Shown piece after piece: positions 9,945 through 40,139 of a stretch of DNA of 46,126 nucleotides. The notes under the pieces were generated by a model that did not search any database, had not been told where the DNA came from, and saw only the letters and a list, made by a program, of their open reading frames with translations. Every line of letters starts with the position of its first letter. Position 1 is the stretch's first letter. The position numbers and the translations under genes were made by a program. The DNA lies in contig JAJQHD010000050.1 of assembly GCA_021199855.1 (NCBI GenBank), forward strand, positions 1 through 46,126, written 5' to 3'. The DNA is from Oscillospiraceae bacterium (lineage in GTDB: Bacteria; Bacillota; Clostridia; Oscillospirales; Ruminococcaceae).

Positions 9945-10289
9945 TCATTCCAAGCCAAATTCTGCCCTGAGCTTCTCGATTGCCCGCTTCTCAATCCGTG
10001 AGACATAGCTCCGGGAGATTCCGAGAAGGCTTGCTGCCTCCCTCTGGGTGAGCGGCTGTCTGCCAAAAAGCCCGTACCGAAGGATGACGATTTCCCGCTC
10101 CCGGTCGTCAAGGATTTCAATCGCCTTGTAGAGCCGCTGGGAATTTATGAGAAGGTCGACCTCCTCACCGATGTCGCCGTCTGTGGCGATGATGTCCATC
10201 AGCGTGAGCTGGTTGCCGTCCTTGTCAGTGTCAATCGGCTCATCAAAGTGGACGTCCTGCGCTGTCTTCTTCACAGAGCGGAAGTGCAT
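9945..10289 (-). CDS. sigK: sigK, C-terminal half (split gene)
   Basis: This encodes sigma regions 3-4 of the mother-cell sporulation factor SigK. Visible blocks include VHFDEPIDTDKDGNQLTLMD, LDDREREIVILRYGL and the region 4.2 helix-turn-helix LTQREAASLLGISRSYVSRIEKRA. The first ATG is at 10289, but it has no ribosome site, and the frame continues open upstream through codons for EIL to the attachment core at 10300-10301. This piece alone is therefore not an independent gene. Joined at that core to the N-terminal half at 39810-40139, it yields a 228-residue SigK reading CIEN|EILMHFRS, which matches the family across the junction. After excision it would direct late mother-cell transcription (coat and spore maturation). 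Confidence 0.92.
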   Translation of the reverse strand: MHFRSVKKTAQDVHFDEPIDTDKDGNQLTLMDIIATDGDIGEEVDLLINSQRLYKAIEILDDREREIVILRYGLFGRQPLTQREAASLLGISRSYVSRIEKRAIEKLRAEFGLE

Positions 10290-12006
10290 GAGGATTTCGT
10301 TTGCTATCAGGGCTTAATGGCTCGATTTCGCCGTTTACAGGCGGCAAATCCACGTCTCCGTCAGCCGCAAACAGGTAAACATGGGCATTTTCTCCATCCC
10401 ATACAATTTTACGAACGATGGCTTTCAGGAGCCGTCGTTTTTCTTCCACTGAAGCATCGTCGATATTCGCCGCAAGTGAAGAAATCATTTGTTGGAAGAA
10501 CTCGAACTCCTGCGATGCCAGCCTCTGATGCTCCATCAGATTCTCAAGCTTGCCAAGGCGTTTTGTCAGGGCTTCGCCGGTCGTGCCAAGCTCCTCAATC
10601 TGCTCGGTGATGTATTTCTCGGCTGTGGAACCCGAAACGTTAGCCAGAGATTTGAGAAGCGCCTTTATCGTCGCTTCATTTTCGCTGAGCTGTTGGCGCA
10701 AGGTCTCTGCCTCCGCCTCATAGCCGTCACGCCCGGAAGCGATGGCTTTCTTTGTCTGACCCAGAAAGTCGGCAAAGAACTCCTTATCATCCGCAAGCTT
10801 CTTTATCTCCTCAATGACTTTGGCATCAAGAGTGTTGCCGTTGGCGTTCTTCATCTTGCAACGGGATCCGGTGCTTCGCTCCTTGGTGTTGCACATATAG
10901 CTGTAGATAAGCTCGCCGTCCTTGTTTCTTCTCTGAGTAAGCTTCGGGCGCATATAGTTGCCGCAGTCTCCGCAAATCAGAAGTCCCGACAGCAAAGCAA
11001 CATTGCTCCTCGGATGGCGATAGCCCTTGTTTCTGTTGCCTTCGAGCATTCCCTGAACCTGAATCCACGTCATTCCGGGAATCAGTCCGGGATGCTTACC
11101 GACAGTCACAATCCACTCATCTACCGAGCGGAGCTTTGTACTCTTTCCTGCCTGCTGATGTGTACGGTTATAAGCCATGATGCCGTGCTGAGCATCAAAT
11201 TCACTCTTATCGGAACACAAATCAGCCTTGTTATCTGCAAAATACCTGTAAGCCGTATCGTCAGCAATCATGTAAACAGGGTTTGAGAGAATATTTCTGA
11301 TGGTGAATCGTGTGAAATCATTTCCCCACTTGGAGGTATACCGATTTTCAAGCAGGAACTGATCGACCTTTGTGAGGGAACCAGTTTCAAGATATTTATC
11401 AAAAATCAACTGTACAAGACTCAGCTCTTCGGGAATCGGAACCAAGCGGAACGACTTGTGAGTCTTGCCATCTATTGTAATCTTGCTCTCACTTTCTGAA
11501 CGATAGCCGGTCGGCGTCGTTCCACCGAGCCAGCGACCGGTTTTGGCAAGTTCGTGCATATTGTCGCGGATTCGCTCGGCGATAGTCTCCCTCTCCAACT
11601 GCGAGAAAACCGAGGCGATGTACATCATGGCTCGTCCCATAGGGGACGAAGTGTCGAACTGCTCCCTGATGGAGATAAAGTCGATGTTTCTCTGCCCAAG
11701 GTCTTCGATGAGCTTGGCGAAGTCGCCGATATTGCGGCTGATACGGTCAAGTCGGTAAACGACGATGGCGGTGAACTGCATTTTGTGAGACTCCGCCATC
11801 ATCCTCTTGAACTGTGGTCGTTCGAGGTTGCCGCCTGAAAATCCCTCGTCCTCGAAAACCAAGGCGTTGTCCGCCTCATCCTGACCGAAGTGCATAGCAA
11901 TGTACTGCCGGCACATTTCAATCTGGTTCTCGATGGATTCTCCCTTTCCTGTGAATTTGGACTTTCGGGAGTAGATGACGTATTGCTTCTTTTCGACTTG
12001 TTTCAT
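10243..12006 (-). CDS. SpoIVCA-like large serine recombinase
   Basis: 587 residues. The N-terminal resolvase domain has YSRKS with nucleophile Ser16, SIENQIEMC and the YRLDRISRN arginine motif. The central recombinase domain (~160-300) is followed by a zinc ribbon with CGDCG and a second Cys pair (YMCN...SRCKM), then a coiled-coil region. Its role is site-specific excision (and presumably integration) of the 29.5-kb element that splits sigK. The ribosome site is GAGGTG before ATG 12006. The stop codon lies inside sigK: the last 18 residues after Lys569 are encoded by the C-terminal sigK half in another frame, so the recombinase tail differs between the integrated and circular forms. Confidence 0.93.
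   Translation of the reverse strand: MKQVEKKQYVIYSRKSKFTGKGESIENQIEMCRQYIAMHFGQDEADNALVFEDEGFSGGNLERPQFKRMMAESHKMQFTAIVVYRLDRISRNIGDFAKLIEDLGQRNIDFISIREQFDTSSPMGRAMMYIASVFSQLERETIAERIRDNMHELAKTGRWLGGTTPTGYRSESESKITIDGKTHKSFRLVPIPEELSLVQLIFDKYLETGSLTKVDQFLLENRYTSKWGNDFTRFTIRNILSNPVYMIADDTAYRYFADNKADLCSDKSEFDAQHGIMAYNRTHQQAGKSTKLRSVDEWIVTVGKHPGLIPGMTWIQVQGMLEGNRNKGYRHPRSNVALLSGLLICGDCGNYMRPKLTQRRNKDGELIYSYMCNTKERSTGSRCKMKNANGNTLDAKVIEEIKKLADDKEFFADFLGQTKKAIASGRDGYEAEAETLRQQLSENEATIKALLKSLANVSGSTAEKYITEQIEELGTTGEALTKRLGKLENLMEHQRLASQEFEFFQQMISSLAANIDDASVEEKRRLLKAIVRKIVWDGENAHVYLFAADGDVDLPPVNGEIEPLSPDSKRNPHALPLCEEDSAGRPL
10293..10311. other. attachment site, C-terminal sigK side
   Basis: The core dinucleotide TT (plus strand) is at 10300-10301. 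The element-side half-arm GATAGCA (minus-strand reading) occupies 10302-10308; the sigK-side arm begins CGAAATC. Confidence 0.85.
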
Positions 12007-12038
12007 GGTGGCACCTCATCGTTAAAATGTTTGAACCC

Positions 12039-12067
12039 ATTATAACATGAAGAACCACATTTGTAAA
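12039..12067 (-). promoter_or_regulatory. recombinase promoter
   Basis: On the minus strand TTTACA (12062-12067), 17 bp, TATAAT (12039-12044), about 33 nt upstream of the start codon. This looks like a vegetative sigma-A promoter. A weaker overlapping match to the sigma-E pattern (TCATCTT, then CATGTTAT, spacing one base too long) is also present, so sporulation control is not excluded. Confidence 0.6.
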
Positions 12068-12344
12068 GATGATTGTTGCGGATTTTGTTGAAATTTAAGA
12101 AGATTTTCCCAGCGAAGCCAAGTTGCAAACCTTCAAAGATTTAGCTGACGCATTTACTGTCGGAATAAAGGTCGATTTTTGCGATTTTTCGCCCCTCAGA
12201 GCCACGAAGTGAGGATATTTCCGTATAGCTTTGCCAAATGGAGGCATCGTGCGATATAATGCAATTTTCGGGCAGTTTTGAGAGGTTGGTTTTGAATATG
12301 TATCACTGTGGGATATAGTTGTAGGGGCTAACGTGGATACGATT

Positions 12345-12387: not shown

Positions 12388-12415
12388 TCTTTAAGCGTAT
12401 AAAACTTGACTGTAC

Positions 12416-14626
12416 TCATTCCTGCAAACCTGCAGAATACTGTTTTTTCATTTGGCTCAACTTTTCCAAAATCTCATCTTCTGTCACTGTGTTTTCCAGT
12501 ATGGTTTCAGGAGATTTTCTCTCGGTAACAAGAATAAAGGCCATAGCATTTATTTGATCATCTTCAGAAAGCAGCCAAAATTGATTGGTAGTAGAAAGCG
12601 TCTTCATACGCTGATATGCTTCATCAGCATTTATGAAGCTTTCAAGAGTCTCTTTGTTAAAATTCCTGGTCTTTTTAGAATTTCTTGCTCCAATAAGTCC
12701 GCGTGAAGTGCAATAACTTATGACTTTTACCAGAGAGTCGTCTTTGGAAGCTAAAGATTTCTTTGTGTCCGCAACAAATTCCGCATCTATTTGTTCTAAC
12801 ATCCACAAAAAGTTCAAACCATTGCGTTGATTCAATGCAGAACCAGAAGCTACCGCATCTTTAGCACGTTTTTCAAAAATTCCTTCAAGCTCTAAAACCT
12901 CCTCAAGCGAAAAAGTGGCATCATTTTGAGAGGTTCCATTCTCTGTAAAACGACCAAGTTGATTTTCAAAATCGTGTAGCAACAGCGATAATGTGGACAC
13001 CTGAATTTCTGAATCACTAAATAGCGTCTTAATGTAAACAAAACGAGATTGTTGATTCATTGCTTTCAACAGAGGGTCAGTAATATAAATAATTCTCCAT
13101 GCAAATGGTACAGCAAGAAAGCCCCTATCATCTACTTCAAAGGAGTTCCAATTGCGAGCAAGCACTGTAATTATCAGTTGCGCTCTCTCAGCAGTAATGG
13201 TTGTTGACCGTTCCTTTCTTGCATAAGCGTCTATTTCCTCAAGTAGTCGCACAATTTTACCTTGTTCATATAATTTCATCACACCATCGTCGAATGCGTT
13301 CTCTGTGGATTCAAAAATCAAGTTTTCAATTATGGATGTAGAAATAGCATCGTTCTCTAAAACTAATGTAAAATATCTATCAAAGCATTCCGAAGCCGCT
13401 ATATTCTTGTTAGTAAGAAAATCCTTACGAGAATAATTTCTGCCAATATCGCTTAATGTACCATCTATTATCTTGATACTTGGAAACAAAATTCCAAGTA
13501 TATTCTTGGCTGCTTGTAAATTTGCCACTGTTCCATCATCGGTCAATATCGGCGACAATTCTTTTCTTGCCTTTTCCTTTAGCAATTCATTCGAATATAA
13601 ATACTCGGAGCTACACAACATATCCTTGTATTTTGTCAATTTGGAAAAAATATAAGGTTCAAAAACCTGAAGCATAGTTAGACCGAGCAAATCAACCAAA
13701 TCCGTGTCTTCTTTTAGAAGCTCATATTTTAGCATAAACACATTTACATAGCGCGACACATCCCTCAAAGTCCTTATGTATTTTGGAAGACAAAACACGT
13801 AAAGGTCTGCCCATGCTTCCTTTGAAAAACGTTCCTGCGGAGTATCAATGGTAATAGACTCAAGCTTAGATATCAAAATGTCGTGAATTATTGTCATATC
13901 AGATGCAGGAATCTCAAAAGGCACCTGCACTATTTTTTCTAAATATTGTTTCCCATCACCATTTTGCACCTTACCAAGAGCATTAACTACAACTTTATAG
14001 TCAAATGCCAACAAGTAAACTGTGCCAGGAAAATCGGCTATTGCCTTTATGAGCTGAAAAACAGCAATTATTTCTTCTTCCGAGAGGCGATCAATATCGT
14101 CAATAGCAACAATAATTTTACACTTTATTTCCTCAAGCTTTCTAACAATTTGATTTTTGCTATATTGCAAATTATCGGTTTGCAATTTGGCTTTCTTGGC
14201 TTTTTTAGATAGTACCTTGCCAATTACGGAAAATACGCTCCCCGCAACAGGAATAGAATCTGCCACATCAAATATATCAGCGTACTGATCGACAAGCTTC
14301 CATAATTTATCTTTTGCTGGTTGTTCCAATTTTATCACTGTTGCTAATTGCTTAAAGAATTGTGTAACAAGTTGATTGGAGTCTGAACACAGCCACGGAT
14401 TAAACCTGAATACTATAACGCTCTTATCCAGCATCTCCGCTTCCACATACTCAAGCGCCATATTTATAAGTGATGTTTTCCCGCTTCCCCATTCCCCGTA
14501 GAGACCAATCGTAAACGAAGAGGGAAAAGAGTTATATAACATGGTCTTGGCGAGGCTTTGAGCAAACGTCCTTCTGTTTAAAATATCATCCTCGGATTTT
14601 GTAATAGGTAAGTCTGTCTCTAACAC
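12416..14626 (-). CDS. KAP-family P-loop NTPase
   Basis: 736 residues from GTG 14626, preferred because GGAGA lies 7 nt upstream; a GTG start at 14650 (744 residues, the numbering used here) is possible but lacks a ribosome site. Walker A is GEWGSGKT (52-59), followed by FRFNPW and a Walker B VAIDDIDRL (181-189), the signature of KAP NTPases. The insert at ~130-148 is hydrophobic (SIPVAGSVFSVIGKVL) but too short to be sure of a membrane hairpin. The C-terminal half is helical and unrecognised. KAP NTPases recur in phage-defence contexts. It is last in the BREX operon, 35 nt after the nuclease stop (11 nt for the longer start), and may act with that nuclease. Confidence 0.8.
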   Translation of the reverse strand: MLETDLPITKSEDDILNRRTFAQSLAKTMLYNSFPSSFTIGLYGEWGSGKTSLINMALEYVEAEMLDKSVIVFRFNPWLCSDSNQLVTQFFKQLATVIKLEQPAKDKLWKLVDQYADIFDVADSIPVAGSVFSVIGKVLSKKAKKAKLQTDNLQYSKNQIVRKLEEIKCKIIVAIDDIDRLSEEEIIAVFQLIKAIADFPGTVYLLAFDYKVVVNALGKVQNGDGKQYLEKIVQVPFEIPASDMTIIHDILISKLESITIDTPQERFSKEAWADLYVFCLPKYIRTLRDVSRYVNVFMLKYELLKEDTDLVDLLGLTMLQVFEPYIFSKLTKYKDMLCSSEYLYSNELLKEKARKELSPILTDDGTVANLQAAKNILGILFPSIKIIDGTLSDIGRNYSRKDFLTNKNIAASECFDRYFTLVLENDAISTSIIENLIFESTENAFDDGVMKLYEQGKIVRLLEEIDAYARKERSTTITAERAQLIITVLARNWNSFEVDDRGFLAVPFAWRIIYITDPLLKAMNQQSRFVYIKTLFSDSEIQVSTLSLLLHDFENQLGRFTENGTSQNDATFSLEEVLELEGIFEKRAKDAVASGSALNQRNGLNFLWMLEQIDAEFVADTKKSLASKDDSLVKVISYCTSRGLIGARNSKKTRNFNKETLESFINADEAYQRMKTLSTTNQFWLLSEDDQINAMAFILVTERKSPETILENTVTEDEILEKLSQMKKQYSAGLQE

Positions 14627-14661
14627 TTTGTTTTCTCCAATCTTTTGCACTATTCAATATG

Positions 14662-16077
14662 TTATTTTTCCTTTGTTATATCAGTACTCTTGACACTTGC
14701 CGAATTTTTTGGGGTCGAATCAATCGTAATGAGAGTAGGGCATCGAGTCCCACTGTCAAGGTCTTTCTGGTATGCTTCTTGTATGCTTTTCAATCTCTTC
14801 GGGTGTCCAACGTCAACGAACATATAAAACATACTATCTGTGTTTTCGGCTTTACCGTATTCCTCAACTTGTTTTTTATACCCGTGTAAGAATTGGCTGT
14901 TGGAGGATAGTTTTATTTCACAGATAGACTTGTCTAAGCCTCTACTTATCTTTAAATCAACAGGACCTCGTCCCAAGTCAGATTCAAATGTCAAATCTAA
15001 ATTATTCAGCTTTATATATTCCTTTGCGGATAAATGCAACAATCTCTGAACGATTTTTTCTCTTTTGCTATCAGAGGCATCTAATATTACAGACCATCCT
15101 TTATTGTTCTCAACCCAATCTTTGAATATATTTGAAATATACTTAATGGCGTCTTGGCTAGTTACTTCCTTCAAATTATTCGAATGTTGTAAGAAGTCAA
15201 ATCCCATCTTCTTTATATCTTTGAATATATACGCTGCAACATAACCCAAATCAGCTTCCCAATCGCACTCGTCTTCATGAGACATACGATAACTTTCTAA
15301 CAGCCTTTGACATTTATCAGGATCTTCAAATATGTAATGTTTCAGAAATGCTTTCTTTTGGCAAGAAGAATATTCTCTCCATCCTGACCCAACCATCTGA
15401 TTGATTTCATCACGGATTGCTTTGTTCTCTGACATAACCCTATCAATATCATCCCAACATCTGGCAATCGGCAACTCATGAAGTATCTCTTTTGGGAGAA
15501 GTAACAAATCGCAGTTCTTATATGAGTTATGCACTACACCGTTTTTGAAAGTCTCATTTGGAAAGTTATCTGGAGTTATGCCAATTTCCTCATTGATTCT
15601 TTTAGTATAAGCGTAAATATCGTCCTTGATAATTGTAGCAAACATATCGCTTAATCTATCTGGACCTACATTGTCTTCAAACAGTCCTACAAGGTGAAAA
15701 ATTTCAGGATCCTTAATACCCTTTTTGATTATATCGTACGCATCACCAATTATCTTCTTACTTAAAACAGTTCCGAAAGCCGCTCCATATTTCGTCGTCG
15801 AAAAGCCAAGGTTGATTCCATTGACTTCAGGAAAATCAAATCTTTTAAGTGCTTCACGATAAAATCTATCTGACTCTGACTTATTTTCCGCATTATCAAG
15901 AAGTATCGCTATGTTTTTAAAATACGAATTCACTTTGTTATATGATTCTTTGAACTCAAATGTTGATGCATCTTTTAGCCTGGTAATATTGATAAAATAA
16001 TGGCTATCTGTATCCATCACCGCATCAAATGTTCCTAAAGCACTAAAATCACGATTGAAATAGCTTGAAATAAACAT
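14662..16077 (-). CDS. putative PD-(D/E)XK nuclease, BREX-associated
   Basis: 471 residues. I do not recognise the family as a whole. The C-terminal region (~360-430) contains GRGPVDLKI with Asp374 and, 13 residues on, EIK (Glu387, Lys389), the spacing and context of a restriction-endonuclease-like core, followed by a helix rich in polar residues and a final strand FYMFVDVG. The N-terminal 340 residues are mixed alpha-beta and may sense or bind a target. The ribosome site is poor (AAGG close to ATG 16077) and there is a 157-bp gap from the upstream CxxC gene, so it may have separate expression. It is paired with the KAP NTPase downstream. Confidence 0.6.
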   Translation of the reverse strand: MFISSYFNRDFSALGTFDAVMDTDSHYFINITRLKDASTFEFKESYNKVNSYFKNIAILLDNAENKSESDRFYREALKRFDFPEVNGINLGFSTTKYGAAFGTVLSKKIIGDAYDIIKKGIKDPEIFHLVGLFEDNVGPDRLSDMFATIIKDDIYAYTKRINEEIGITPDNFPNETFKNGVVHNSYKNCDLLLLPKEILHELPIARCWDDIDRVMSENKAIRDEINQMVGSGWREYSSCQKKAFLKHYIFEDPDKCQRLLESYRMSHEDECDWEADLGYVAAYIFKDIKKMGFDFLQHSNNLKEVTSQDAIKYISNIFKDWVENNKGWSVILDASDSKREKIVQRLLHLSAKEYIKLNNLDLTFESDLGRGPVDLKISRGLDKSICEIKLSSNSQFLHGYKKQVEEYGKAENTDSMFYMFVDVGHPKRLKSIQEAYQKDLDSGTRCPTLITIDSTPKNSASVKSTDITKEK

Positions 16078-16234: not shown

Positions 16235-16447
16235 TCACCTAAACAACGTACACCCTTCCTCTTTAAATTCCTCGACCTTTGCAAGTAGCTCATCTTCAGT
16301 TACCTCAAAGTAGTCCGCAAGGCAATGTAAACAATAAAATTGTTTAGCCTTCCTATCAATAAGCTTTTTGACCAAGCCAATTTCATCTTTTGTAAGAGGG
16401 TGTTTGCCACAAGAACAGCAGATTTTTTCGTCAGTATTTCGCATCAT
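16235..16447 (-). CDS. small CxxC zinc-binding protein
   Basis: A 70-residue protein starting at ATG 16447 (AAGGG 6 nt upstream), overlapping the 3' end of brxL by 17 nt. Two Cys pairs (ICCSCGKH near the N-terminus and FYCLHCLADYF) suggest a zinc ribbon or treble-clef-like fold. Translational coupling to brxL implies a BREX accessory role. I recognise no named family. It could be a structural subunit or regulator; the function is unknown. Confidence 0.7.
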   Translation of the reverse strand: MMRNTDEKICCSCGKHPLTKDEIGLVKKLIDRKAKQFYCLHCLADYFEVTEDELLAKVEEFKEEGCTLFR

Positions 16448-17933
16448 CAAATTCCCTTATTCCAAAATTCGGCAAATCCTTGCCTGCATACTCAACGTCG
16501 AGCAAGCCTAATTGATACTTGATGGTGTCTCTCATTCTTCTTGCTCGGTCAAGGCAGTATCTCTTAAACTCACGGGTTGATATATCTGTTGGCTCCTGAA
16601 CGTGCGAAAACAGCAATTTTAAGTAGGCGGTTGCAATACGTTTTACCGCTTCTGTATCTCTTGTATCTGCGCCATCAGGGACAATCACCAGTTCATCAAC
16701 AATACTACGATATGATGAATCATCTCTTAGTTCATGCATAATCGAGCAAAAGTATTCCGAGTTTAAAGCCCAACCATGAACTTTTAAATCATCGTTCATT
16801 CTTGGAATGTTCCAGCCTTTAATGAAGCCGTGGAATCTCTCAATCAACGCAGACTCGTGGAATACCTCAGGCAATTCGGTGAACATATTGCTATAACCGT
16901 CTGCATCCATTATCTCCTTACGAATATTTCCGCAAAGTATCACTCCTGCAAAAGCTATGCCTTTGTAGTCACCAACCGTGAAATTACCATTTTCAAGATA
17001 ACCCTTTAACGCTGCTCTCATTTCATCGGTATCCGTAAACGAAATTGTTTGCACTTCATCCAGTGTCACAAAATCGCTTCCGGTTATTAAGCCTTCTTTA
17101 CGCTTGGATTGGTCATAAAACATTTTTGCTCTGCTCATAATCCCACCGCTTGAAAGCCAACCGTACCTGCTTACATTTCCGAAAAGATATGATTTACCGG
17201 TGCCCTTAGGGGCAAGTTCAATAAGATTCAATCTTTTTTCTACAAAGGGAAGCAATCTTGTAAGCATGGTAAGCTTCTCTTCTTCGGATTTATATCCATC
17301 GGCATTGTAATCAACTGCACCCAAAAGTACGTTAATCCACTCATCAGTTGTAAATTCTTTTCTTGCTTCTTTATACTCTTCAACGTCAATATTGTATGGG
17401 CAGAAATTCTTAAAGGAAATCAGTTTAATCTTTCCTTCCTTAGAATTCTTTGCTCGTGAAGATTTAGTCTCATATTCAAATTCCATGTCAAAATCATCTG
17501 GGGATCTATAGCCAAGCTCGACCATTCCCCATATATCGTGACCTTTGACAAGATCTTCTTTACAAGTGTCCCACACATCGCTTTCGATGATGGTTTCTTT
17601 AAATCCAAGTCCAAAATCAGGTAAAGCAAATGATACCTCACCTGTTTTTATATCAATATTGACCGAGACTTTCGCAAGAAACTTGACTCTTTCTCCCTCG
17701 ACAACGATTTTATTCTTTATTGCATTCCAATCGTCTTTTCTTGGAATGAACTTTTTTACGAAACGAGAAAGCTCATCCTTGTCAAACTCGCCTTCATCGT
17801 TCTCGAATTTTTTAAGGAGCCAATCTCGCATAAAAGCCGGTAAGCTTAATGCAGAAAAGAAATTCGTTTTTTTCAAATCTTTATAGACAACCATTTCATC
17901 AAAACAGTCTCGCAATTTTTCTGACAGCTCCAT
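16431..17933 (-). CDS. brxL: BrxL, BREX AAA+ protein (short form)
   Basis: 500 residues. The N-terminal domain (1-190) begins LRDCFDEMVVYKDL and contains an OB-like region (GERVKFLAKVSVNID). The AAA+ domain has Walker A APKGTGKS (241-248) and Walker B FVTLDE (288-293), then the GGIMSRAKMF and ILCGNIRKEI blocks typical of BrxL. BrxL assembles on DNA and is needed for BREX defence in several systems. Here the protein ends soon after the AAA+ lid (FDDAKY), without the Lon-like C-terminal domain of the ~680-residue BrxL of type 1 systems. Whether this is normal for type 4 or a truncation is unclear; there is no frameshift evidence downstream. It lies 17 nt after pglZ. Confidence 0.85.
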   Translation of the reverse strand: MELSEKLRDCFDEMVVYKDLKKTNFFSALSLPAFMRDWLLKKFENDEGEFDKDELSRFVKKFIPRKDDWNAIKNKIVVEGERVKFLAKVSVNIDIKTGEVSFALPDFGLGFKETIIESDVWDTCKEDLVKGHDIWGMVELGYRSPDDFDMEFEYETKSSRAKNSKEGKIKLISFKNFCPYNIDVEEYKEARKEFTTDEWINVLLGAVDYNADGYKSEEEKLTMLTRLLPFVEKRLNLIELAPKGTGKSYLFGNVSRYGWLSSGGIMSRAKMFYDQSKRKEGLITGSDFVTLDEVQTISFTDTDEMRAALKGYLENGNFTVGDYKGIAFAGVILCGNIRKEIMDADGYSNMFTELPEVFHESALIERFHGFIKGWNIPRMNDDLKVHGWALNSEYFCSIMHELRDDSSYRSIVDELVIVPDGADTRDTEAVKRIATAYLKLLFSHVQEPTDISTREFKRYCLDRARRMRDTIKYQLGLLDVEYAGKDLPNFGIREFDDAKY

Positions 17934-29429: not shown

Positions 29430-29789
29430 GTCCGTTGTAAAGTAGGAGGGATTTTTTCGACGCGCCGCACATAAGAAAAAATTCCGGATTTGGTGGGACA
29501 CTTTTCGGAAAATTTGTCCATTGTAAATTGAGAGAGGCTTTTTACGGCGTATCACTCATGAGCAAAAACTTTTCGAAATTGATGCAACATCTCCCCGAAA
29601 TTATGTCCGTTGTAAAGTAGAGGGAGTTTTCGCAAATTACACTCAGAAAAATTTTTCTGTGCATACCTCAACAAACGCTGAAAAATTGTCCGTTGTAAAG
29701 TAGGAGGAGTTTTAAACGGCAAAAAAATTCAAATTCGATGGGACACTTTCTCAGAAAAACGTCCGTTGTATAGTGAAAGGAGATTTTCT
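29430..29789 (+). repeat. five degenerate ~80-bp direct repeats upstream of mobC
   Basis: A core GTCCGTTGTAAAGTAGGAGG starts at 29430, 29516, 29605, 29688 and 29761 (spacings 86, 89, 83 and 73). Three copies are almost exact over 14 or more bases; the second has changes. Each unit ends in a T-rich stretch and a partially conserved GATGGGACAC-like block. The fifth copy supplies the ribosome site of mobC; the first four look like mobC leaders without a start codon. A relaxosome-binding or oriT array, or replication iterons, are plausible roles. Confidence 0.7.
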
Positions 29790-30753: not shown

Positions 30754-30775
30754 TTTGTCGAGAGGAGGACAGCCG

Positions 30776-30967
30776 ATGGAAGTATTCCTGCACTTACCAA
30801 AAACCGAAAAAGGCAAAGCCGAGCTTGCGGAGGAGCTTGCTCATTTCCACGCCGAACACGCTGTAGAAATTCTCCGCAAGCTGCCCTGCCCGACCGAGCA
30901 GAAGCTGAAGCTGTTGGATGCAGTTGTGAAAGATGCAAGACAACAGGCGAAAGGCGAGGGTACATAA
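30776..30967 (+). CDS. small helical protein of mobile-element type
   Basis: 63 residues with a strong ribosome site (GAGGAGG before ATG 30776). It is predicted all-helical, with a conserved-looking block KLPCPTEQKLKLLDAV and a basic end. I do not recognise a family. It follows the RepA_N gene by 22 bp and is probably co-transcribed with it; small genes of this kind accompany RepA_N modules in Clostridial elements. Confidence 0.55.
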   Translation: MEVFLHLPKTEKGKAELAEELAHFHAEHAVEILRKLPCPTEQKLKLLDAVVKDARQQAKGEGT

Positions 30968-31150: not shown

Positions 31151-31164
31151 AGGCGGTGAATTTG

Positions 31165-32274
31165 ATGATTGTAAAAATAGGCAATATATTTGAAAGCTCG
31201 GCTCAGACCCTTGTCAACACGGTTAATTGCGTGGGCGTTATGAGCAAGGGTATTGCACTGGATTTCAAGAACAAGTACCCCGCTATGTTCAGCGAATACG
31301 TTGAGCTATGCAAATCAGAAAAAGTCAAGCCGGGTGTTCCATACTATTATTCTGATTTGTCAGGCACTTCGATTATCAATTTCCCAACTAAAAATCATTG
31401 GCGTTCGCCATCCAAGCTTTCTTATATCATTGATGGGCTGAATTGGTTCAGAGATAATTATTGTGACCTTGGCATTACATCCATCGCTTTTCCACCTCTA
31501 GGATGCGGAAATGGCGGTCTGCCATGGACTGTCGTTGGACCGGTAATGTACGAAAAACTGCATGACCTTCCTATTGACATTGAAATCTATGCTCCCTACG
31601 GAACAAAGCCGGAAGAGCTTACGGAGAGTTTTCTATCCAAAAACATCATTCATTCTGCTGAGGATGTAATCGGAAATCAAAGTTTGCCTTTCAATAAATA
31701 TTGGCTTCTGATTCTTTACGTTGTCCAGAAATTGAACAATGACAGGTACTCTTTGAACGTTGGAAGGACTATTTTCCGGAAAGTGTGCTACATCCTTACC
31801 AGAACCGGTGTGCCTACAGGCTTCAACTTTATTGAGGGCAGTTACGGACCATATTCAAAAGAAGTCAAAGACGCTGTTACGGTGCTTTCTAATGCCAATC
31901 TGATGTCGGAACGTCAACTCGGAAAAATGGTTGAAACCGTTGTCTCTCCTGATTTTAAATTGCAAGAGGATCAGTTCACGGAACAGGACATAAAAAATGC
32001 AGACCAGGCTTTTGACCTCTTGAGCAGAATCAGAAGCACCGATCAAGCAGAAATGGTTGCTACCGTGCTGTTCTCGTTTGATGAGCTTCTCAAGCAAGGA
32101 AGCAATCCCAAAGACGTCGATGTTTTTAATCATATTCTGAAATGGAAGCCTCGTTGGAAGAATCAAAAGGAAGATGAAATAAGCGACACAATCCTCAGTC
32201 TGTCGTCGTTGGGTTGGATGAATCCAATTTACACCGGAGAATTGGCTTCTGCTGATGATGCACTTTATGCTTAA
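31165..32274 (+). CDS. DarG-like macro-domain antitoxin
   Basis: 369 residues from ATG 31165 (AAGGCGG 8 nt upstream), preferred over GTG 31156. Residues 1-150 form a macro domain: VNTVNCVGVMSKGIALDFKN for the ADP-ribose pocket and PPLGCGNGGLPW for the glycine loop. Residues ~170-300 match the DarG C-terminal domain (YSLNVGRTIFRKVCYILTRTG, EGSYGPYSKEV). DarG removes ADP-ribose from DNA thymidine or guanosine and neutralises DarT. No intact darT is in the window. It may therefore be an orphan that reverses DNA ADP-ribosylation by invading elements (anti-addiction) or simply a relic. Confidence 0.85.
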   Translation: MIVKIGNIFESSAQTLVNTVNCVGVMSKGIALDFKNKYPAMFSEYVELCKSEKVKPGVPYYYSDLSGTSIINFPTKNHWRSPSKLSYIIDGLNWFRDNYCDLGITSIAFPPLGCGNGGLPWTVVGPVMYEKLHDLPIDIEIYAPYGTKPEELTESFLSKNIIHSAEDVIGNQSLPFNKYWLLILYVVQKLNNDRYSLNVGRTIFRKVCYILTRTGVPTGFNFIEGSYGPYSKEVKDAVTVLSNANLMSERQLGKMVETVVSPDFKLQEDQFTEQDIKNADQAFDLLSRIRSTDQAEMVATVLFSFDELLKQGSNPKDVDVFNHILKWKPRWKNQKEDEISDTILSLSSLGWMNPIYTGELASADDALYA

Positions 32275-33336: not shown

Positions 33337-34188
33337 TCACTGTTGTAGTTTACGATATGGCACCATCAATATTTTTTCAAAACGTTCCCGTAGCATCACT
33401 TTATAGAATCGCTTGCGGGTGTCGGTTATTCCTTCCACCTCGTCAATCATCGAATTGATTCTCGTGAAATCCACTTTCGGAACAATTCGTTCCAAAGCCT
33501 TGTTGCATTCATCGAACTGCATACTGCTGATGACTTCATAGTAGGAACTCTTTTTGTTTCCAACTTTGATGTGTGAGGTTGGGAAATCATAGATACGACG
33601 ATTGATTTCATCCTCTGACGCGAGCACACGTTCGATGGCTCCGTCCGTATTCAGTCTCGGATACAGGCACGAGCCGTTGTCATATACAGGAGCAATCCGA
33701 TAGGCATTGTCACGCTTGATAAAGCCCCAGTTTCCACCATGACGGTCGAAGTTCCCAATCAGCGCATCAACGATAAACATATCCCAGAAACGCTGAATTG
33801 TTTCTTCGACGTGGGTAGATTTCGCATTATCCTGCAACATAGATATAATGTCTTCATAAGTGTATTGATAGAGTTCCTTATCCCGTTCCAACGAGCTTTC
33901 ACCCACGCCATTAAATGCTACAAGTGTCTCTCCGGGTTCCAAAAAGTTTTTCAGAACCACAACATTCTGCCCATCGCAAGTGCCGAGAAACGTTTCCTGC
34001 ATAGGAATGCCCACTGAATCAAAAATATGGCTTCCAAGATATTCGGAAACATGGTTATACATCAGTCCGACCTCGGAATTTTTCTGGAATTTCACGATAT
34101 ATCTATGCCCGTCAATGACAATCTCAAACTTCTTCTCCGCCCCCGAAAACATCATTGGCGTTCTTTCGTACATGGAATAGTCTTTCAT
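33337..34188 (-). CDS. HipA/CtkA-like serine/threonine kinase
   Basis: 283 residues, CtkA-sized rather than full HipA (~440). The sequence shows RYIVKFQKN with probable ATP Lys33, then VDALIGNFDRHGGNWGF with catalytic Asp148 in the HipA-type D-R-H-x-x-N loop, and PVYDNGS with metal Asp170. Such kinases phosphorylate cytosolic targets (aminoacyl-tRNA synthetases for HipA) and cause growth arrest. It has a perfect promoter at 34217-34245 and is followed by the 301-residue partner gene, suggesting a toxin-antitoxin or phage-sensing module. Active-site residues are intact. Confidence 0.82.
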   Translation of the reverse strand: MKDYSMYERTPMMFSGAEKKFEIVIDGHRYIVKFQKNSEVGLMYNHVSEYLGSHIFDSVGIPMQETFLGTCDGQNVVVLKNFLEPGETLVAFNGVGESSLERDKELYQYTYEDIISMLQDNAKSTHVEETIQRFWDMFIVDALIGNFDRHGGNWGFIKRDNAYRIAPVYDNGSCLYPRLNTDGAIERVLASEDEINRRIYDFPTSHIKVGNKKSSYYEVISSMQFDECNKALERIVPKVDFTRINSMIDEVEGITDTRKRFYKVMLRERFEKILMVPYRKLQQ

Positions 34189-34564: not shown

Positions 34565-35203
34565 ATGCTCCACGCATACCAAGAAATCTACCTCAGTAGC
34601 GCAATGTCGTCGATGGGGGAAGCCTTTGATTATGCCGTAAACGACTGCAAAATTCCCGGTGGCGATTTCGTTAAACTGCTTATCGTGAGTCCGGTTAGCA
34701 GTAGGATTGAAAACGGCGAGCCGGCATATCTTGCCGGAAAAAGCGGTATTGAGATTGCCCGTGAATGTGTAAAAGACACGACGGGAAAAGAGCTTGCCGT
34801 CGAGCCACAGCCCCATTACGACCGCTCTCCCGAATACTGGTGCGGTTGGGCTGTTGCCTACTACCAGTGGTACTCCTCAAGAAAGTATAGCGAGATTTTC
34901 AGGGCGGTTTCCTTCGATGATTTGCTCCGTATGTACCCAACCCTGCACGAAGCCGACGTCACCAAGTTCGCTGATATTGTTGACGAGATAGTCCGCAAAG
35001 CGTTCCCTGAAACCAATCTGAAACGTTTTCGCAAGTTGTACGGTTACTCCCAAAGCGAGCTTTCAAAGCTCTCCGGCGTCAGCCTGCGCTCGATTCAGAT
35101 GTATGAGCAGCGGCAGAAGGACATCAACAAGGCAAGCGTTGACACGGTCCGCAGGCTTGCGAAGGTGTTTGGGTGTGCGGTTGAGGATTTGGTGGAGAAG
35201 TGA
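34565..35203 (+). CDS. XRE-family regulator with N-terminal sensor-like domain
   Basis: 212 residues, with ribosome site AAGGAAG before ATG 34565. The C-terminal ~60 residues are an XRE helix-turn-helix (LKRFRKLYGYSQSELSKLSG, SLRSIQMYEQRQ, LAKVFGCAVEDLVE). The N-terminal ~140 residues begin MLHAYQEIYLSSAMSSMGEAFDYAV and are found, as I recall, in many gut Clostridia next to this HTH; the function is not known. It stands alone in a transcription unit whose promoter carries a palindromic operator. It could be the antitoxin-like repressor of a larger regulon, because the same operator block occurs at 45948. Confidence 0.75.
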   Translation: MLHAYQEIYLSSAMSSMGEAFDYAVNDCKIPGGDFVKLLIVSPVSSRIENGEPAYLAGKSGIEIARECVKDTTGKELAVEPQPHYDRSPEYWCGWAVAYYQWYSSRKYSEIFRAVSFDDLLRMYPTLHEADVTKFADIVDEIVRKAFPETNLKRFRKLYGYSQSELSKLSGVSLRSIQMYEQRQKDINKASVDTVRRLAKVFGCAVEDLVEK

Positions 35204-35456: not shown

Positions 35457-35461
35457 AAACG

Positions 35462-37235: not shown

Positions 37236-38312
37236 TTACAAACATATCATTTCCACTTCTTGGTGGCTTTTCTCATCCATCAGCACGCGAACCGCTTCAA
37301 CCAAATAGCCATACGCTTCTATATTCTGATTTCTTATGTAAGATAACTTCTTGTACTTACTATCTGGCATTGGTACGTTTATATATTTTTCTGGATCTTC
37401 AATCCTCTGAAACGATTTATTCTTCAAAATGCAAGCCGCAAGATACATCACGGTACAAGCACCAATGGCTGCTGATTCTCCGGAAAATCTTCCACCATAG
37501 ATGTGCGTTCTTATGCCTTTGATTCCGCCAGAAAGAAGTTGATAATCTTCCCGATTGATCGAACCTCTTGACACAACGCACGCGGCAGTTTCGATTGTGT
37601 CATTCAGGCAGTCTTCCACACTGCAACCTTTTCCTCGATAAGCAATTTCCGCTTCTACAGTTCTCATATATGAATCGTATACATCCTGAAAATTATCGCA
37701 TACGTTGGCAAGCGAAATTACGTCAAACAGTTGCTTGATTATTTCCAGCTCCTTATTTACTCCATAAGGTATCCCTGTTGTATGTGGAGCAAATGCGGTT
37801 AGTTTGTCGCCAAGAATGCAGTTTACACTGGGAACTGTAACTTTTAGGTAAGGCTCCTCTGTGATTAACAAATCGTTCTTTATCTCTTTTTCAACAACAG
37901 AACTGTAGTGGTCTTCCTCAAACAAGACGTCAAGCAGAATATAAAGTTCTCGATTCCCTACAGGAGAATCATAGTAAAATTTAAAATGTCGCTTTACCAC
38001 ATTGTTCTTACCGATTCTGATCTGTTCATCCTGACGTTTAAAAGGGAAGATTTCTGATGCTCGTTCAATGTAGTGGTCGATGTCTGTTCCCGGCTCAACG
38101 ATTATATCTACATCAGTAGATAATCGACGAGGGTGTTCCAAAAGTAGCATTAAACTCGTGCCGCCTTTAAAAATAAAAGGCATATCAACACGAACCAACG
38201 ACTCCAATAATCCAAATGCGTAAATGCTTCTTTCAAGCAAACTCGGATCGCATATCTTGTTACTTGCGAGCTCTTTTATGTGTGCCAAATCAAAGGTCTC
38301 TCTTTTTATCAT
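37236..38312 (-). CDS. abiEii: AbiEii-type nucleotidyltransferase toxin
   Basis: 358 residues from ATG 38312, chosen because AAGGAAG within the end of abiEi lies at the proper distance. The nucleotidyltransferase signature is FKGGTSLMLLLEHPRRLSTDVDI, with GGTS at 50-53 and metal ligands Asp67/Asp69, followed by the ILGDKLTAF motif. AbiEii toxins transfer nucleotides (to tRNA in characterised relatives), causing bacteriostasis after phage infection. It is coupled to the antitoxin gene upstream (4-nt gap). A dispersed hairpin terminates the unit. All core residues are present. Confidence 0.88.
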   Translation of the reverse strand: MIKRETFDLAHIKELASNKICDPSLLERSIYAFGLLESLVRVDMPFIFKGGTSLMLLLEHPRRLSTDVDIIVEPGTDIDHYIERASEIFPFKRQDEQIRIGKNNVVKRHFKFYYDSPVGNRELYILLDVLFEEDHYSSVVEKEIKNDLLITEEPYLKVTVPSVNCILGDKLTAFAPHTTGIPYGVNKELEIIKQLFDVISLANVCDNFQDVYDSYMRTVEAEIAYRGKGCSVEDCLNDTIETAACVVSRGSINREDYQLLSGGIKGIRTHIYGGRFSGESAAIGACTVMYLAACILKNKSFQRIEDPEKYINVPMPDSKYKKLSYIRNQNIEAYGYLVEAVRVLMDEKSHQEVEMICL

Positions 38313-38316
38313 AGCT

Positions 38317-39063
38317 TTATACTTCCTTATTGTTTCTGATTTTGTTGCCGAGAACATCAATCATAACGTCTTGCTTATTTCTTCGTCTTGCATAGCGAAG
38401 CAGCTTAGCATCATCGACAAGATACTTGTCGTACATATCATTTATAATCTGTGGCACCTCGCCAACGCTGATTAAACTTCTCAAAATTTTGTTGGCTTCA
38501 AGTTCTACCATGATTTTCTCTAACGGAACAGAGCCTTTCTTATCTCCCTTGGGCGTTTCAGTAATCAACCGACCTATCACGATAGTGCCGTCTTTTCCAT
38601 AGCGGTACACCTGCTCAACAGTAGGTTTCAGAAGAAGCTCACCATCGTACTTATCTCTGAGTTCTTCATACACAAACTCACAGCCTTCCTTTTCAACATC
38701 AAGGAAGATGATATTCTCAGCTACAAGGTGGTTCAGAAATTCATTGAGCCAACGCAGTTCCCACACCTGAAAAGGCAATAGCGGGAATCTTTCTGCTACG
38801 TCATTCACCAAATTCTCTGCTCTTTCTGAATACGTACCAGAATAGACTTTTTTAATGTTTTGCCCTTCAGATTTTTTGACATAGCTAACATAGTGACCTC
38901 TTCCAACACGGCTGATTCTTTCATTTGACATCAGCTCACCTAAAAGATTCCTGAGAAGTGTCTCTCGAAAAGTATCATCAACACTTTTTGCAATATTGCA
39001 AATGTCCTGGCGAGTCATCTCAACACCGGGCTTAAGACTTTTTTCTATTAGCTCTATATTCAT
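38317..39063 (-). CDS. abiEi: AbiEi-family antitoxin
   Basis: 248 residues from ATG 39063 (AGAGGTGA upstream); a 6-codon extension to 39081 would run into the operator palindrome, so I reject it. The N-terminal winged helix (MTRQDICNIAKSVDDTF, ISRVGRGHYVS) binds DNA. The C-terminal domain carries the antitoxin function in AbiEi relatives (type IV, acting without direct toxin binding). The promoter is bracketed by two perfect palindromes, consistent with cooperative autorepression as described for AbiEi of Streptococcus agalactiae. Confidence 0.85.
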   Translation of the reverse strand: MNIELIEKSLKPGVEMTRQDICNIAKSVDDTFRETLLRNLLGELMSNERISRVGRGHYVSYVKKSEGQNIKKVYSGTYSERAENLVNDVAERFPLLPFQVWELRWLNEFLNHLVAENIIFLDVEKEGCEFVYEELRDKYDGELLLKPTVEQVYRYGKDGTIVIGRLITETPKGDKKGSVPLEKIMVELEANKILRSLISVGEVPQIINDMYDKYLVDDAKLLRYARRRNKQDVMIDVLGNKIRNNKEV

Positions 39064-39075
39064 GCAATCACCTCT

Positions 39076-39115
39076 AACCATATCGGCAAAAAATTAAAAA
39101 TTTGCCGATATGGTT
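39076..39115. promoter_or_regulatory. AbiEi operator, promoter-proximal
   Basis: AACCATATCGGCAAA-N10-TTTGCCGATATGGTT, a perfect 15-bp inverted repeat, begins at the -10 box and extends towards the abiEi ribosome site. Confidence 0.75.
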
Positions 39116-39144: not shown

Positions 39145-39182
39145 CCACATCGGCAAAAAAATTAAAATTTGCCGATGTGGTT
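39143..39182. promoter_or_regulatory. AbiEi operator, upstream
   Basis: AACCACATCGGCAAA-N10-TTTGCCGATGTGGTT, a perfect 15-bp inverted repeat, overlaps the first two bases of the -35 box. The centres of the two operators are 67 bp apart. Confidence 0.75.
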
Positions 39183-39219
39183 AGTGTTACTCACTATTAT
39201 CTTCCCTAAAATACCTCTC

Positions 39220-39672
39220 CTAAGTTCTCTTAACCATCCTTACCTCATCCTTTTCCCACTTCCTGAGATTGCCGGTCGATGCGCCGAGGCGAGCGGCGTA
39301 TTCTTCACGAGTCAGTCCGAGCTTTTTACGCTTCGCTATCACTTGCTTGCCCTGTCCTCGATAGATAAACAGATTATATTCATCCGTCAGGTCTTCCGCA
39401 GGAACGCCATATAGCTCGGCGAGCTTGGCGATATGTTCAGGCGGGCAGAAATCTCGGTCAGGTTCCTCATAGCCGCTATAGGTCTGCCGCTCGACGCCCA
39501 GATACTCGGCGACTTCAAACTGATACAGCCCTTTATGATAACGGTGCCAACGGAGCTTGTCCGGCATACTCTCAACTTCTTCAAGAGATGTGAACTGGAG
39601 ATTGAACTTCACGGCATCGTTATACTTCTTTATAGACAGCAGAGGGAGATGCAAAACCATCAGCGGTGCCAC
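39220..39672 (-). CDS. double-HTH protein, 5'-shortened at the att site
   Basis: 150 residues from GTG 39672 (GGCGG 6 nt upstream). It has two XRE-like helix-turn-helix segments, one at ~45-90 (RYHKGLYQFEVAEYLGVERQ) and one at ~110-145 (AKRKKLGLTREEYAARLGAS). The frame is open for 45 codons upstream of this GTG, to the attachment core, and that stretch is protein-like (IFGSIWKPFWYVRDHGYIVA) but lacks ATG, GTG or TTG. On the excised circle this frame joins the recombinase frame at Lys569, predicting a ~764-residue fusion. In the chromosome only the shortened protein can be made. A likely role is a regulator of the element. Confidence 0.65.
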   Translation of the reverse strand: MAPLMVLHLPLLSIKKYNDAVKFNLQFTSLEEVESMPDKLRWHRYHKGLYQFEVAEYLGVERQTYSGYEEPDRDFCPPEHIAKLAELYGVPAEDLTDEYNLFIYRGQGKQVIAKRKKLGLTREEYAARLGASTGNLRKWEKDEVRMVKRT

Positions 39673-39791
39673 TTCAATCCGCCCTGTTATATTTGAAGCG
39701 ACTATATAACCATGGTCTCTTACATACCAAAAAGGCTTCCAAATCGAGCCGAAAATATGATTCTGATGGTCATTTTCAGATATTGATTCCG

Positions 39792-40139
39792 TTATGTACC
39801 GATAGCATTTTCAATACACCTCGCTCCGAACGCCGCAAACCTGTTTCCTTTGCTCGGGTCGAACGAATTGACCGCCTTGATGAGCCCGACCGTGCCGATA
39901 GAAATCAGCTCCTCCTGCTCGTCGGCGGTGACGTAATACTTCTTCACGATGTGCGCCACGAGCCGAAGATTGTGGAGAATGAGTGCGTCCCGTGCGCCGG
40001 TGTCTCCCTCCGAAAAATCCTTGAAAAGCCGCTCCTCCTCGGCAGGGCTGAGAGGCTTCGGAAACGAGCTCTTGTCCTCGATGTGGAGGGCGAACCAGAG
40101 CAGGCGGCTGAAAATATTTGAGATTATTCTTAAAAACAT
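39792..40139 (-). CDS. sigK: sigK, N-terminal half (split gene)
   Basis: 115 codons, of which 110 are sigK. Residues 1-~28 (MFLRIISNIFSRLLWFALHI) form a hydrophobic pro-sequence like that removed from pro-SigK by SpoIVFB. Sigma region 2 follows: HNLRLVAHIVKKYY, ELISIGTVGLIKAVNSFDPS and GARCIEN. After GAA AA the frame enters the element and stops within five codons (AIGT, stop). Joining at the core to the C-terminal half restores CIEN|EILMHF. The ribosome site GGGGTGA precedes ATG 40139. A TATACT lies at 40155-40160 (minus), but I see no reliable -35. Confidence 0.92.
   Translation of the reverse strand: MFLRIISNIFSRLLWFALHIEDKSSFPKPLSPAEEERLFKDFSEGDTGARDALILHNLRLVAHIVKKYYVTADEQEELISIGTVGLIKAVNSFDPSKGNRFAAFGARCIENAIGT
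39802..39817. other. attachment site, N-terminal sigK side
   Basis: The core dinucleotide TT (plus strand) is at 39808-39809. The element-side half-arm TGCTATC (minus-strand reading) is at 39801-39807, inverted relative to the arm at 10302-10308. Confidence 0.85.

What the first reader, a model, noticed from the sequence alone, without database searches (positions are those of the whole stretch)
9945..40139. sigK is split by a 29.5-kb skin-type element whose exact ends can be read
The N- and C-terminal sigK halves lie 29.5 kb apart on the same strand. Crossing over at the AA core (10300-10301 with 39808-39809) gives 228 uninterrupted codons with the family sequence CIEN|EILMHFRS. It also makes the circle junction GATAGCA-AA-TGCTATC, a perfect dyad around a 2-bp core, as serine recombinases require. 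Skin elements are known in Bacillus subtilis and Clostridioides difficile; this one has different cargo.
Basis: partly seen in the sequence, partly recalled or inferred. Interest (0 to 1): 0.93.

Follow-up and report, generated by a model that had tools for sequence, protein, structure and literature searches.

The report
Sporulation gene split by defence island
A gut bacterium's gene for a late sporulation regulator is interrupted by a 29.5-kb island of anti-phage genes that a built-in recombinase is predicted to cut out during spore formation; close relatives of that recombinase sit in the same gene in many spore-forming bacteria, and the island may split its own recombinase gene too.

Summary
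In detail: sigK is split at codons CIEN|E by a 29,508-bp element, and joining at the AA core gives 228 open codons. It is not chance: a genus-mate holds the empty site; of the 80 best recombinase relatives kept from a genome scan, 75 lie directly against the sigK 3' half, 3 against the inverted 5' half, 2 end at a contig edge. Both halves are under purifying selection. By anatomy it is a skin-type element; excision itself is untested. Beyond the finding: (1) Cargo is a type-4-like BREX operon plus other defence genes. (2) A 63-aa gene (30776-30967, +) belongs to a family found in 19 of 21 complete elements, with a sigmaE-like promoter and SpoIIID-like box upstream; I propose it as directionality factor. 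(3) The predicted circle junction GATAGCAAATGCTATC occurs intact 88 bp from a family recombinase in a viral contig. (4) The recombinase frame meets the junction: integrated, sigK sequence ends it; in the circle it would fuse to the left-end helix-turn-helix protein in 7 of 18 elements, though several relatives have that frame broken.

The parts
39808..40139 (-). sigK 5' half (sigma region 2, hydrophobic pro-sequence-like N terminus)
   Evidence: (TIGR02846 positions 4-113); dN/dS 0.06-0.11 against the split genomes G025 and G030
9945..10301 (-). sigK 3' half (sigma region 4)
   Evidence: (TIGR02846 positions 115-226); dN/dS 0.047-0.056 against split genomes G025 and G001
10300..10301 (.). crossover core AA at the sigK 3' half; element arm GATAGCA on its element side
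39808..39809 (.). crossover core AA at the sigK 5' half; element arm TGCTATC on its element side
10243..12006 (-). large serine recombinase, 587 aa (Resolvase, Recombinase, zinc ribbon); its last 19 codons are host sigK DNA read in another frame
   Evidence: dN/dS 0.03-0.04
12039..12067 (-). sigmaA-like promoter of the recombinase, TTTACA-17-TATAAT
   Evidence: one mismatch; 36 of 82 family upstream regions have 2 or fewer mismatches against 5.9 in shuffles
30776..30967 (+). 63-aa conserved small protein, candidate recombination directionality factor (predicted two-helix hairpin)
30727..30755 (+). sigmaE-like promoter ATA-N17-CATA with GGACAAG (SpoIIID-like) box before the small gene
39220..39807 (-). 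left-end helix-turn-helix frame; ORF 39220-39672 by start codon, frame open back to the crossover core and in phase with the recombinase across the circle junction
24386..26704 (-). brxP (PAPS reductase)
20236..24384 (-). brxC/pglY
17951..20227 (-). pglZ
16431..17933 (-). brxL
26710..28869 (-). 719-aa protein upstream of brxP, no family match
14662..16077 (-). 471-aa protein, weak match to a candidate defence family (PDC-M36A)
12416..14650 (-). KAP NTPase, PifA-like
29793..30119 (+). NikA-like mobilisation protein
30337..30753 (+). RepA_N replication-initiator-like protein
31156..32274 (+). DarG-like macrodomain protein
33337..34188 (-). HipA-like protein
34565..35203 (+). second helix-turn-helix protein, 212 aa
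35462..36970 (-). Schlafen/AlbA_2 protein
37236..38360 (-). AbiEii-like nucleotidyltransferase
38317..39081 (-). DUF6577 protein beside the AbiEii-like gene

Best explanation
This is a skin-type element of a recombinase lineage that targets sigK. Integrated, it keeps sigK broken in vegetative cells and in the spore line. The recombinase has a vegetative (sigmaA-like) promoter. In the mother cell, sigmaE with SpoIIID is proposed to switch on the 63-aa protein at 30776, which acts as directionality factor and lets the recombinase join the two AA cores. sigK is rebuilt in frame and the 29.5-kb island leaves as a circle. The forespore keeps the island, and with it the BREX and other defence genes. 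Shown by sequence: the split, the in-frame joint, the dyad, the site preference of the recombinase lineage, selection on both halves, the conserved small gene and its promoter motif. Inferred: that excision occurs, that it is confined to the mother cell, and that the small protein is the directionality factor.
For: Exact in-frame joint. Empty site in G024. Recombinase against the sigK 3' half in 75 of 80 loci, 3 more against the inverted 5' half, 2 not evaluable. Both halves, the recombinase and the small gene are under purifying selection. Small gene in 19 of 21 complete elements, including a 2.6-kb one whose other ORFs of 90 aa or more are a 168-aa gene and the recombinase. By my tally, at E <= 1e-12 it occurs in 14 of 16 genomes with the recombinase-sigK arrangement (window's own included) and 5 of the other 133, 4 of which have a sigK 5' half with the element's left end. 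Promoter: ATA-N17-CATA upstream of 23 of 37 small genes against a mean of 0.63 in shuffles, with a sharp spacing peak at 17; with GACA inside, 11 of 26 non-redundant small genes, 0 of 91 cargo ORFs, 0 of 83 recombinases. Host has Spo0A and SpoIIID genes. In C. difficile the recombinase is sigmaA-dependent and its directionality factor needs sigmaE and SpoIIID (PMC5025042, passages). Predicted junction 16-mer beside a family recombinase in a viral contig.
Against: No excision product was seen: the junction 16-mer is absent from all 149 genomes searched, which confinement to mother cells would give but so would no excision. No expression data. The small gene lies 18.8 kb from the recombinase in the window; it is missing from L136 and was not found in G080, nor in G015 and G044. 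The looser promoter pattern (ATR-N16-18-CATA) is not specific: it also occurs upstream of 37 of 83 recombinases, and 11 of 26 small genes lack even ATA-N17-CATA. sigmaE and SpoIIID consensus sequences are recalled, not from a call. Sporulation of this host is inferred from genes only.
Confidence: 0.75

Rival explanations
1. The element excises as an ordinary mobilisable element, in any cell and at low rate; its place in sigK is only a safe landing site and there is no developmental control.
For: RepA_N and NikA-like genes in the island; patchy distribution in the genus; viral contig with the same junction; frame continuity with the HTH protein makes sense only in the circle.
Against: Conserved sigmaE/SpoIIID-like promoter before the small gene; sigK halves stay under strong purifying selection, which fits sigK being rebuilt whenever cells sporulate.
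Confidence: 0.13
2. The left-end HTH protein, not the 63-aa protein, is the directionality factor.
For: An HTH-family match lies at the element end beside the sigK 5' half in 9 of 21 complete elements and is conserved in divergent elements.
Against: No such match in 12 of the 21, whereas the small gene is in 19 of 21. I did not test its promoter separately.
Confidence: 0.12
3. The element is dead and sigK is a pseudogene pair in a lineage that no longer makes spores.
For: Two genus-mates show no sigK-like match beyond SigE/SigG-like ones (G013, G018), though an assembly gap would look the same; element remnants exist.
Against: dN/dS 0.05-0.11 for both halves and 0.03-0.04 for the recombinase; conserved ends; Spo0A and SpoIIID kept.
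Confidence: 0.06
4. Assembly chimera.
For: The window is a contig of a 58-contig draft.
Against: Same arrangement in other assemblies, some on one contig.
Confidence: 0.01

Closest known systems
C. difficile skin (CD1231 recombinase, CD1234 directionality factor; PMC5025042, passages read)
   Same: sigK interrupted; recombinase directly before the 3' half; recombinase sigmaA-dependent, directionality factor under sigmaE and SpoIIID, which is the logic inferred here from promoters.
   Different: Prophage-like element there; sigK there lacks a pro-sequence, here one is present by sequence. Whether CD1231 and CD1234 are homologous to the proteins here, and whether the insertion codon is the same, was not tested: I had no C. 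difficile skin sequence.
B. subtilis skin (SpoIVCA, Skr; PMC6957869 and PMC10745906, passages read)
   Same: Reconstitution of sigK by a serine recombinase with a small directionality factor; crossover in an AATGA sequence, and many elements here read AAATGA at their 3'-half end.
   Different: 48-kb defective prophage; SpoIVCA sporulation-controlled, skr overlaps spoIVCA. SpoIVCA and Skr were not compared by sequence.
B. cereus biovar anthracis sigK island IV (PMC10745906, passages read)
   Same: Non-phage island in sigK with a defence system (type I restriction-modification); excised during sporulation.
   Different: Inserted at position 195 of sigK, recombinase beside the 5' half in the opposite direction; no BREX named in the passages. 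It is the precedent for a defence-bearing sigK insertion, so defence cargo as such is not new.
gin element in gerE of B. cereus ATCC10987 (PMC5595907, passages read)
   Same: Non-prophage element in a sporulation gene with its own recombinase; excised in sporulation.
   Different: Other gene; recombinase itself sporulation-controlled.
Archaeal suicidal tyrosine integrases (PMC8371274, passages read) and mycobacteriophage integration-dependent immunity (PMC4557955, start of abstract in a search listing)
   Same: Attachment site inside a coding frame, so integration changes the gene product.
   Different: Tyrosine integrase cut through its protein, or (as I recall) a repressor gene; here a serine recombinase keeps its catalytic part and loses a predicted C-terminal HTH part, the stop being supplied by host DNA. 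[quoted passage not shown]

Membership tests
skin-type (sigK-intervening) element | sigK split so that precise joining restores the frame | tested here: met
skin-type (sigK-intervening) element | own site-specific recombinase for the sigK site | tested here: met
   by adjacency and site conservation; activity not tested
skin-type (sigK-intervening) element | excised in the mother cell during sporulation | not testable with these tools
   only indirect: promoter motif before the candidate directionality factor
skin-type (sigK-intervening) element | prophage-like gene content | tested here: not met
   no phage structural family among the larger island ORFs scanned with Pfam; PHROGs was run only on the small gene. 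gin and island IV show that published elements of this kind need not be prophages
large serine recombinase | Resolvase, Recombinase and zinc-ribbon domains, YSRKS serine motif | tested here: met
large serine recombinase | dyad attP half-sites around a 2-bp core | tested here: met
   (16 of 21 elements used); the inner 8 bases alone p 0.14
[quoted passage not shown]
   in that order on one strand
type-4 BREX | DUF4007 component, found in 97% of type-4 taxa by PMC12839542 (passages) | tested here: inconclusive
   no Pfam DUF4007 match in the seven proteins at E <= 0.001; the PADLOC BrxP model matches over nearly the full length
integrative mobilisable element | relaxase or mobilisation genes | tested here: inconclusive
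   NikA-like and RepA_N genes; no relaxase named among the ORFs scanned
self-splitting (suicidal-type) integrase | attachment site inside the recombinase coding frame | tested here: met
   window frame open through the junction with 196 further codons; but frame broken or short in 11 of 18 elements, 9 of which have no HTH match at all
self-splitting (suicidal-type) integrase | fused protein is made from the circle | not testable with these tools
   inferred from phase and conservation

The most novel reading that the evidence does not exclude
Integration splits two genes at once. The recombinase gene of a subset of these elements is really a recombinase-HTH fusion whose frame contains the attachment site. 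In the chromosome, sigK's own codons (AAT GAA, read as a TGA stop) cut the recombinase off just after the crossover, and its HTH part is left at the far end. Excision would rebuild sigK in the chromosome and the full-length recombinase in the circle in one step, so the enzyme changes form with the state of the DNA: a short form in the host, a long form for entry into a new cell. Coupled to a sporulation-controlled directionality factor, this would be a bacterial serine-recombinase counterpart of the archaeal self-splitting integrases.
Probability: 0.4. Interest if true: 0.82.

Novelty: new variant of a known kind. Interest (0 to 1): 0.7.

Why it matters
[quoted passage not shown] a 2017 paper already calls sigK-intervening elements distributed among Bacilli and Clostridia (PMC5595907). 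Here one recombinase lineage lies in sigK in 78 of the 80 best loci of a scan, the other 2 being cut off, in records titled Oscillospiraceae, Flavonifractor, Lacrimispora, Sporomusa, Holdemania and others, so programmed loss of DNA in the mother cell may be common in gut spore-formers. The conserved small gene gives a testable directionality-factor family with a promoter prediction. The window's island puts a phage-defence operon where only the spore line would keep it. The split recombinase, if real, adds a way for an integrase to sense whether it is integrated. My literature searches (open-licence PMC only; listings plus the passages named) showed no report of BREX in a skin element, of this small gene family, or of a serine recombinase split in this way; that is not proof of absence.

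Tried and rejected
Considered and rejected: assembly artefact (relatives show the same arrangement); chance frame joint (same codon in the relatives read); BREX as family cargo (BrxC in 3 of 149 genomes, the window's own included; the other two, G019 and G063, have it on a contig other than that of their sigK). Pfam and PADLOC scans of 91 cargo ORFs from 18 of the other complete elements gave NiFe hydrogenase, pantothenate genes, pyruvate formate-lyase-like and alpha-galactosidase, and scattered defence candidates (AbiT, PD-T4-6, DRT-like among them) (only the 25 commonest families are listed by the tool), so defence is one cargo among many. 137 ORFs had been called in 20 elements; I dropped the recombinases, some short or near-duplicate ORFs, and those of L146 and L165.

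Led nowhere: the PDB profile search with the small-gene alignment gave one match at E 0.00011 (9hnh_A) that is the sum of three weak repeats, none significant alone; Foldseek on the AlphaFold model gave no match better than E 7; Pfam gave one below-cutoff match, PHROGs and plasmids none, phages one at E 0.9; one HTH-family sequence gave no plasmid match. The viral scan with the HTH family found 4 loci; 3 were checked and none had a recombinase match on the stretch held, so no fused gene was seen in an assembled circle. L177, the viral contig with the predicted junction, ends its recombinase 88 bp before the junction and does not show the fusion. G079 has a 40%-identical recombinase that is not in sigK.

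Against my readings: the loose promoter pattern is common upstream of recombinases (37 of 83), and the strict one also occurs once outside the element in the window, at 9409. The 37 small genes had starts set by me from the matches. For the fused frame: L148 breaks off after 84 codons, probably by a frameshift; L123 has a partial HTH match (residues 148-202) out of frame; L130's recombinase ends 4 codons before the core; in the genus G025, which has a whole recombinase, the frame runs only 55 codons, and G029 15. The pN/pS test (0.31 in frame, 0.62 and 0.91 in the others) rests on few substitutions and on G005, G008, G027 and G030, for which no recombinase match was found. After this recheck I lowered the novel case from 0.45 to 0.40. 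In the dyad test, 5 of 21 elements were left out: L139 and L165 (3' end misplaced by my pattern) and L080, L143, L146 (near duplicates). Complete elements are biased to small size, since most loci were fetched with 10-kb flanks.


Full report
What was checked. The window is contig 54 of a 2.31-Mb, 58-contig draft genome. Its nearest named relatives by recombinase are metagenome-assembled genomes titled Ruminococcus sp. and Oscillospiraceae bacterium (98% identity). sigK is in two parts on the minus strand, 39808-40139 and 9945-10301; each part matches one portion of the SigK models, and joining at the AA core gives 228 open codons with CIEN|EILMHFRS at the seam. The element is 29,508 bp and has lower G+C (0.406) than its flanks in the window (0.478).

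It is a recurrent, specific insertion. In the genus-mate G024, sigK is whole at the same locus with the same upstream stretch. Of 149 genomes searched, 33 have a recombinase match at E <= 1e-40; of the 30 recombinase loci fetched, 16 (the window's included) have the sigK 3' half beside the recombinase. A scan of one genome per species kept the best 80 of 542 relatives of the recombinase; in 75 of the 80 the sigK 3' half starts within 300 bp of the recombinase end, in 3 the 5' half lies there inverted, and in the other 2 the contig stops 30-102 bp after the recombinase. The crossover codon and end sequences GATAGCAAA and TGCTATC, or variants of them, recur across genera. A viral-contig scan with the same alignment kept 80 loci, of which 4 (L167-L169, L171) lie by a sigK piece.

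The ends form a bipartite dyad. For 16 complete elements (of 21; 2 misplaced ends and 3 near duplicates left out), the left arm complements its own right arm better than swapped arms (113 of 160 against a mean of 105.2 at positions 1-10, p 0.009; 133 of 240 against 111.7 at positions 11-25, p 0.002). The innermost 8 bases alone are not significant (p 0.14), being much alike in many elements. The exact predicted junction of the window, GATAGCAAATGCTATC, is absent from 149 genomes and present in 30 viral-contig stretches. Of these, one contig carries a family recombinase (45.6% identity to a member), and there the 16-mer begins 88 bp after the recombinase stop, with no sigK piece detected on the stretch held (15.4 of 27.4 kb). 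I read this as an element with an intact, unintegrated attachment site.

Both sigK halves are kept by selection: dN/dS 0.06-0.11 for the 5' half against the split genomes G025 and G030, and 0.047-0.056 for the 3' half against G025 and G001; the recombinase has 0.03-0.04 and the small gene 0.02-0.09. The host keeps Spo0A and SpoIIID genes. The N terminus of SigK is hydrophobic and aligns from position 4 of the full-length model, so a pro-sequence, absent in C. difficile (PMC5025042), appears to be present.

A candidate directionality factor. The smallest complete element, L137 (2,633 bp), has a 168-aa ORF, the recombinase and a 56-aa ORF on the opposite strand. Relatives of that 56-aa protein are in 19 of 21 complete elements (window, L078-L082, L107, L122, L123, L129, L130, L137, L139, L143, L146, L148, L158, L161, L165; not in L083, which shows no family recombinase, nor L136); none was found in G080. 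The window copy is 30776-30967 (+), 63 aa. The family alignment (30 sequences) has an invariant proline and a conserved LxCPxxQK stretch; AlphaFold gives a two-helix hairpin (mean pLDDT 90). By profile it occurs in 23 of 149 genomes at E <= 0.01; at E <= 1e-12 my tally is 14 of the 16 genomes with the recombinase-sigK arrangement and 5 of the other 133.

Its promoter. Upstream of 23 of 37 copies stands ATA-N17-CATA, against a mean of 0.63 in 200 dinucleotide shuffles (maximum 3); other spacings from 12 to 23 give 0-4. Many copies are related, so I repeated it on 26 non-redundant ones: 15 of 26, against 4 of 91 cargo ORFs. With GACA placed just after the ATA it is 11 of 26, against 0 of 91 cargo ORFs and 0 of 83 recombinase upstream regions; the loosest form, however, is as common before recombinases (37 of 83) as a background would be. 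The window has ATACGGGACAAGCCGGAGTGCATATGATT at 30727-30755. From recall, sigmaE promoters read ATA ... CATA and SpoIIID boxes GGACA(A)G. The recombinase instead has TTTACA-17-TATAAT; 36 of 82 family members have two or fewer mismatches to the sigmaA consensus against 5.9 in base shuffles. This is the division of labour shown by experiment in C. difficile: recombinase sigmaA-dependent, directionality factor under sigmaE and SpoIIID (PMC5025042, passages).

The recombinase frame meets the junction. In all 18 complete elements tested the recombinase frame meets the core in the same phase. In 14 of 17 read, the integrated recombinase ends one residue after the core, the host bases T GA (from AAT GAA) making the stop; in the window (sigK AAC) it runs 19 codons and in L081 10 codons further on host DNA, and in L130 it ends 4 codons before the core. 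Read across the predicted circle junction, the frame continues for 153-235 codons in 7 of 18 elements (window, L078, L079, L080, L081, L143, L158), straight into the left-end HTH protein; it continues 84 codons in L148 and 1-29 in the other 10. Of those 10, nine have no HTH-family match at the left end, and L123 has a partial one out of frame. The added segment is alignable among divergent elements (five sequences, 34-37% identity to the window copy). In the window and in G005, G008, G027 and G030 the first 45 codons after the core contain no ATG, GTG or TTG, yet are conserved in this frame (pN/pS 0.31, against 0.62 and 0.91 in the others, on few changes, and the four relatives show no recombinase match). 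Against this, G025, with a whole recombinase, has only 55 codons of the frame, G029 15 and G030 150. The simplest reading for the seven is that a fused protein is, or recently was, made from the circle. No assembled circle with the fused gene was found.

Cargo. The window island carries brxP, brxC, pglZ and brxL in one operon, a KAP/PifA-like gene, DarG-like, HipA-like, AlbA-like and AbiEii-like genes, and RepA_N and NikA-like genes. BrxC is in 3 of 149 genomes, the window's own included. The other 20 complete elements span 2.6-11.5 kb, a range limited by the 10-kb flanks fetched, and carry varied cargo. [quoted passage not shown] cereus biovar anthracis (PMC10745906, passages).

Conclusion. 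A known kind of developmental rearrangement, in a lineage and form that I found no description of: a recombinase lineage found in sigK, a conserved small gene with a mother-cell-type promoter, defence cargo, and, in a subset, a recombinase frame that is itself interrupted by integration. Excision, its timing and the role of the small protein remain predictions.

Noticed in passing
G005, G008, G027, G029 (L067-L073): These genus-mates have a 5' sigK half followed by the element's left end, and also a whole sigK (on the same contig in G005, G008, G029); in G008 and G027 a recombinase fragment of 51 codons precedes the whole gene. The upstream stretch of the whole copy resembles that of G019's sigK rather than that of the half. 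It looks like sigK regained beside a decapitated element.
   Followed up: partly
G025 contig 39 (L075): Recombinase codons 1-51, in two pieces, lie upstream of the 5' sigK half, suggesting an older broken element beside a newer one.
   Followed up: partly
G019 contig 54 (L264): HTH-family frame about 10 kb upstream of a whole sigK, perhaps another element remnant.
   Followed up: no
L096 (Faecalibacterium prausnitzii APC923/61-1): A genus usually described as not forming spores (recalled) has a family recombinase directly before a sigK-like 3' half (41% identity).
   Followed up: no
L130, L136, L139, L161, L165 and other complete elements: Pfam hits among the cargo include NiFe hydrogenase, pantothenate synthesis, alpha-galactosidase and pyruvate formate-lyase-like genes (one search does not say which member has which).
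   Followed up: partly
L052 (G079): A 40%-identical recombinase lies outside sigK, before a membrane-protein-like frame, with a weak small-gene match (E 2e-7) about 3 kb away.
   Followed up: no
G003: Holds both a whole sigK (contig 62) and split sigK halves (contigs 8 and 18).
   Followed up: no
G080 (L084, L085): Split sigK whose recombinase lies at the 5'-half end in the opposite direction.
   Followed up: no
window 29400-29780: Repeated intergenic motif like GTCCGTTGTAAAGTAG several times upstream of the NikA-like gene.
   Followed up: no
window 6989-8623 (-): TIR-TPR protein just outside the element.
   Followed up: no
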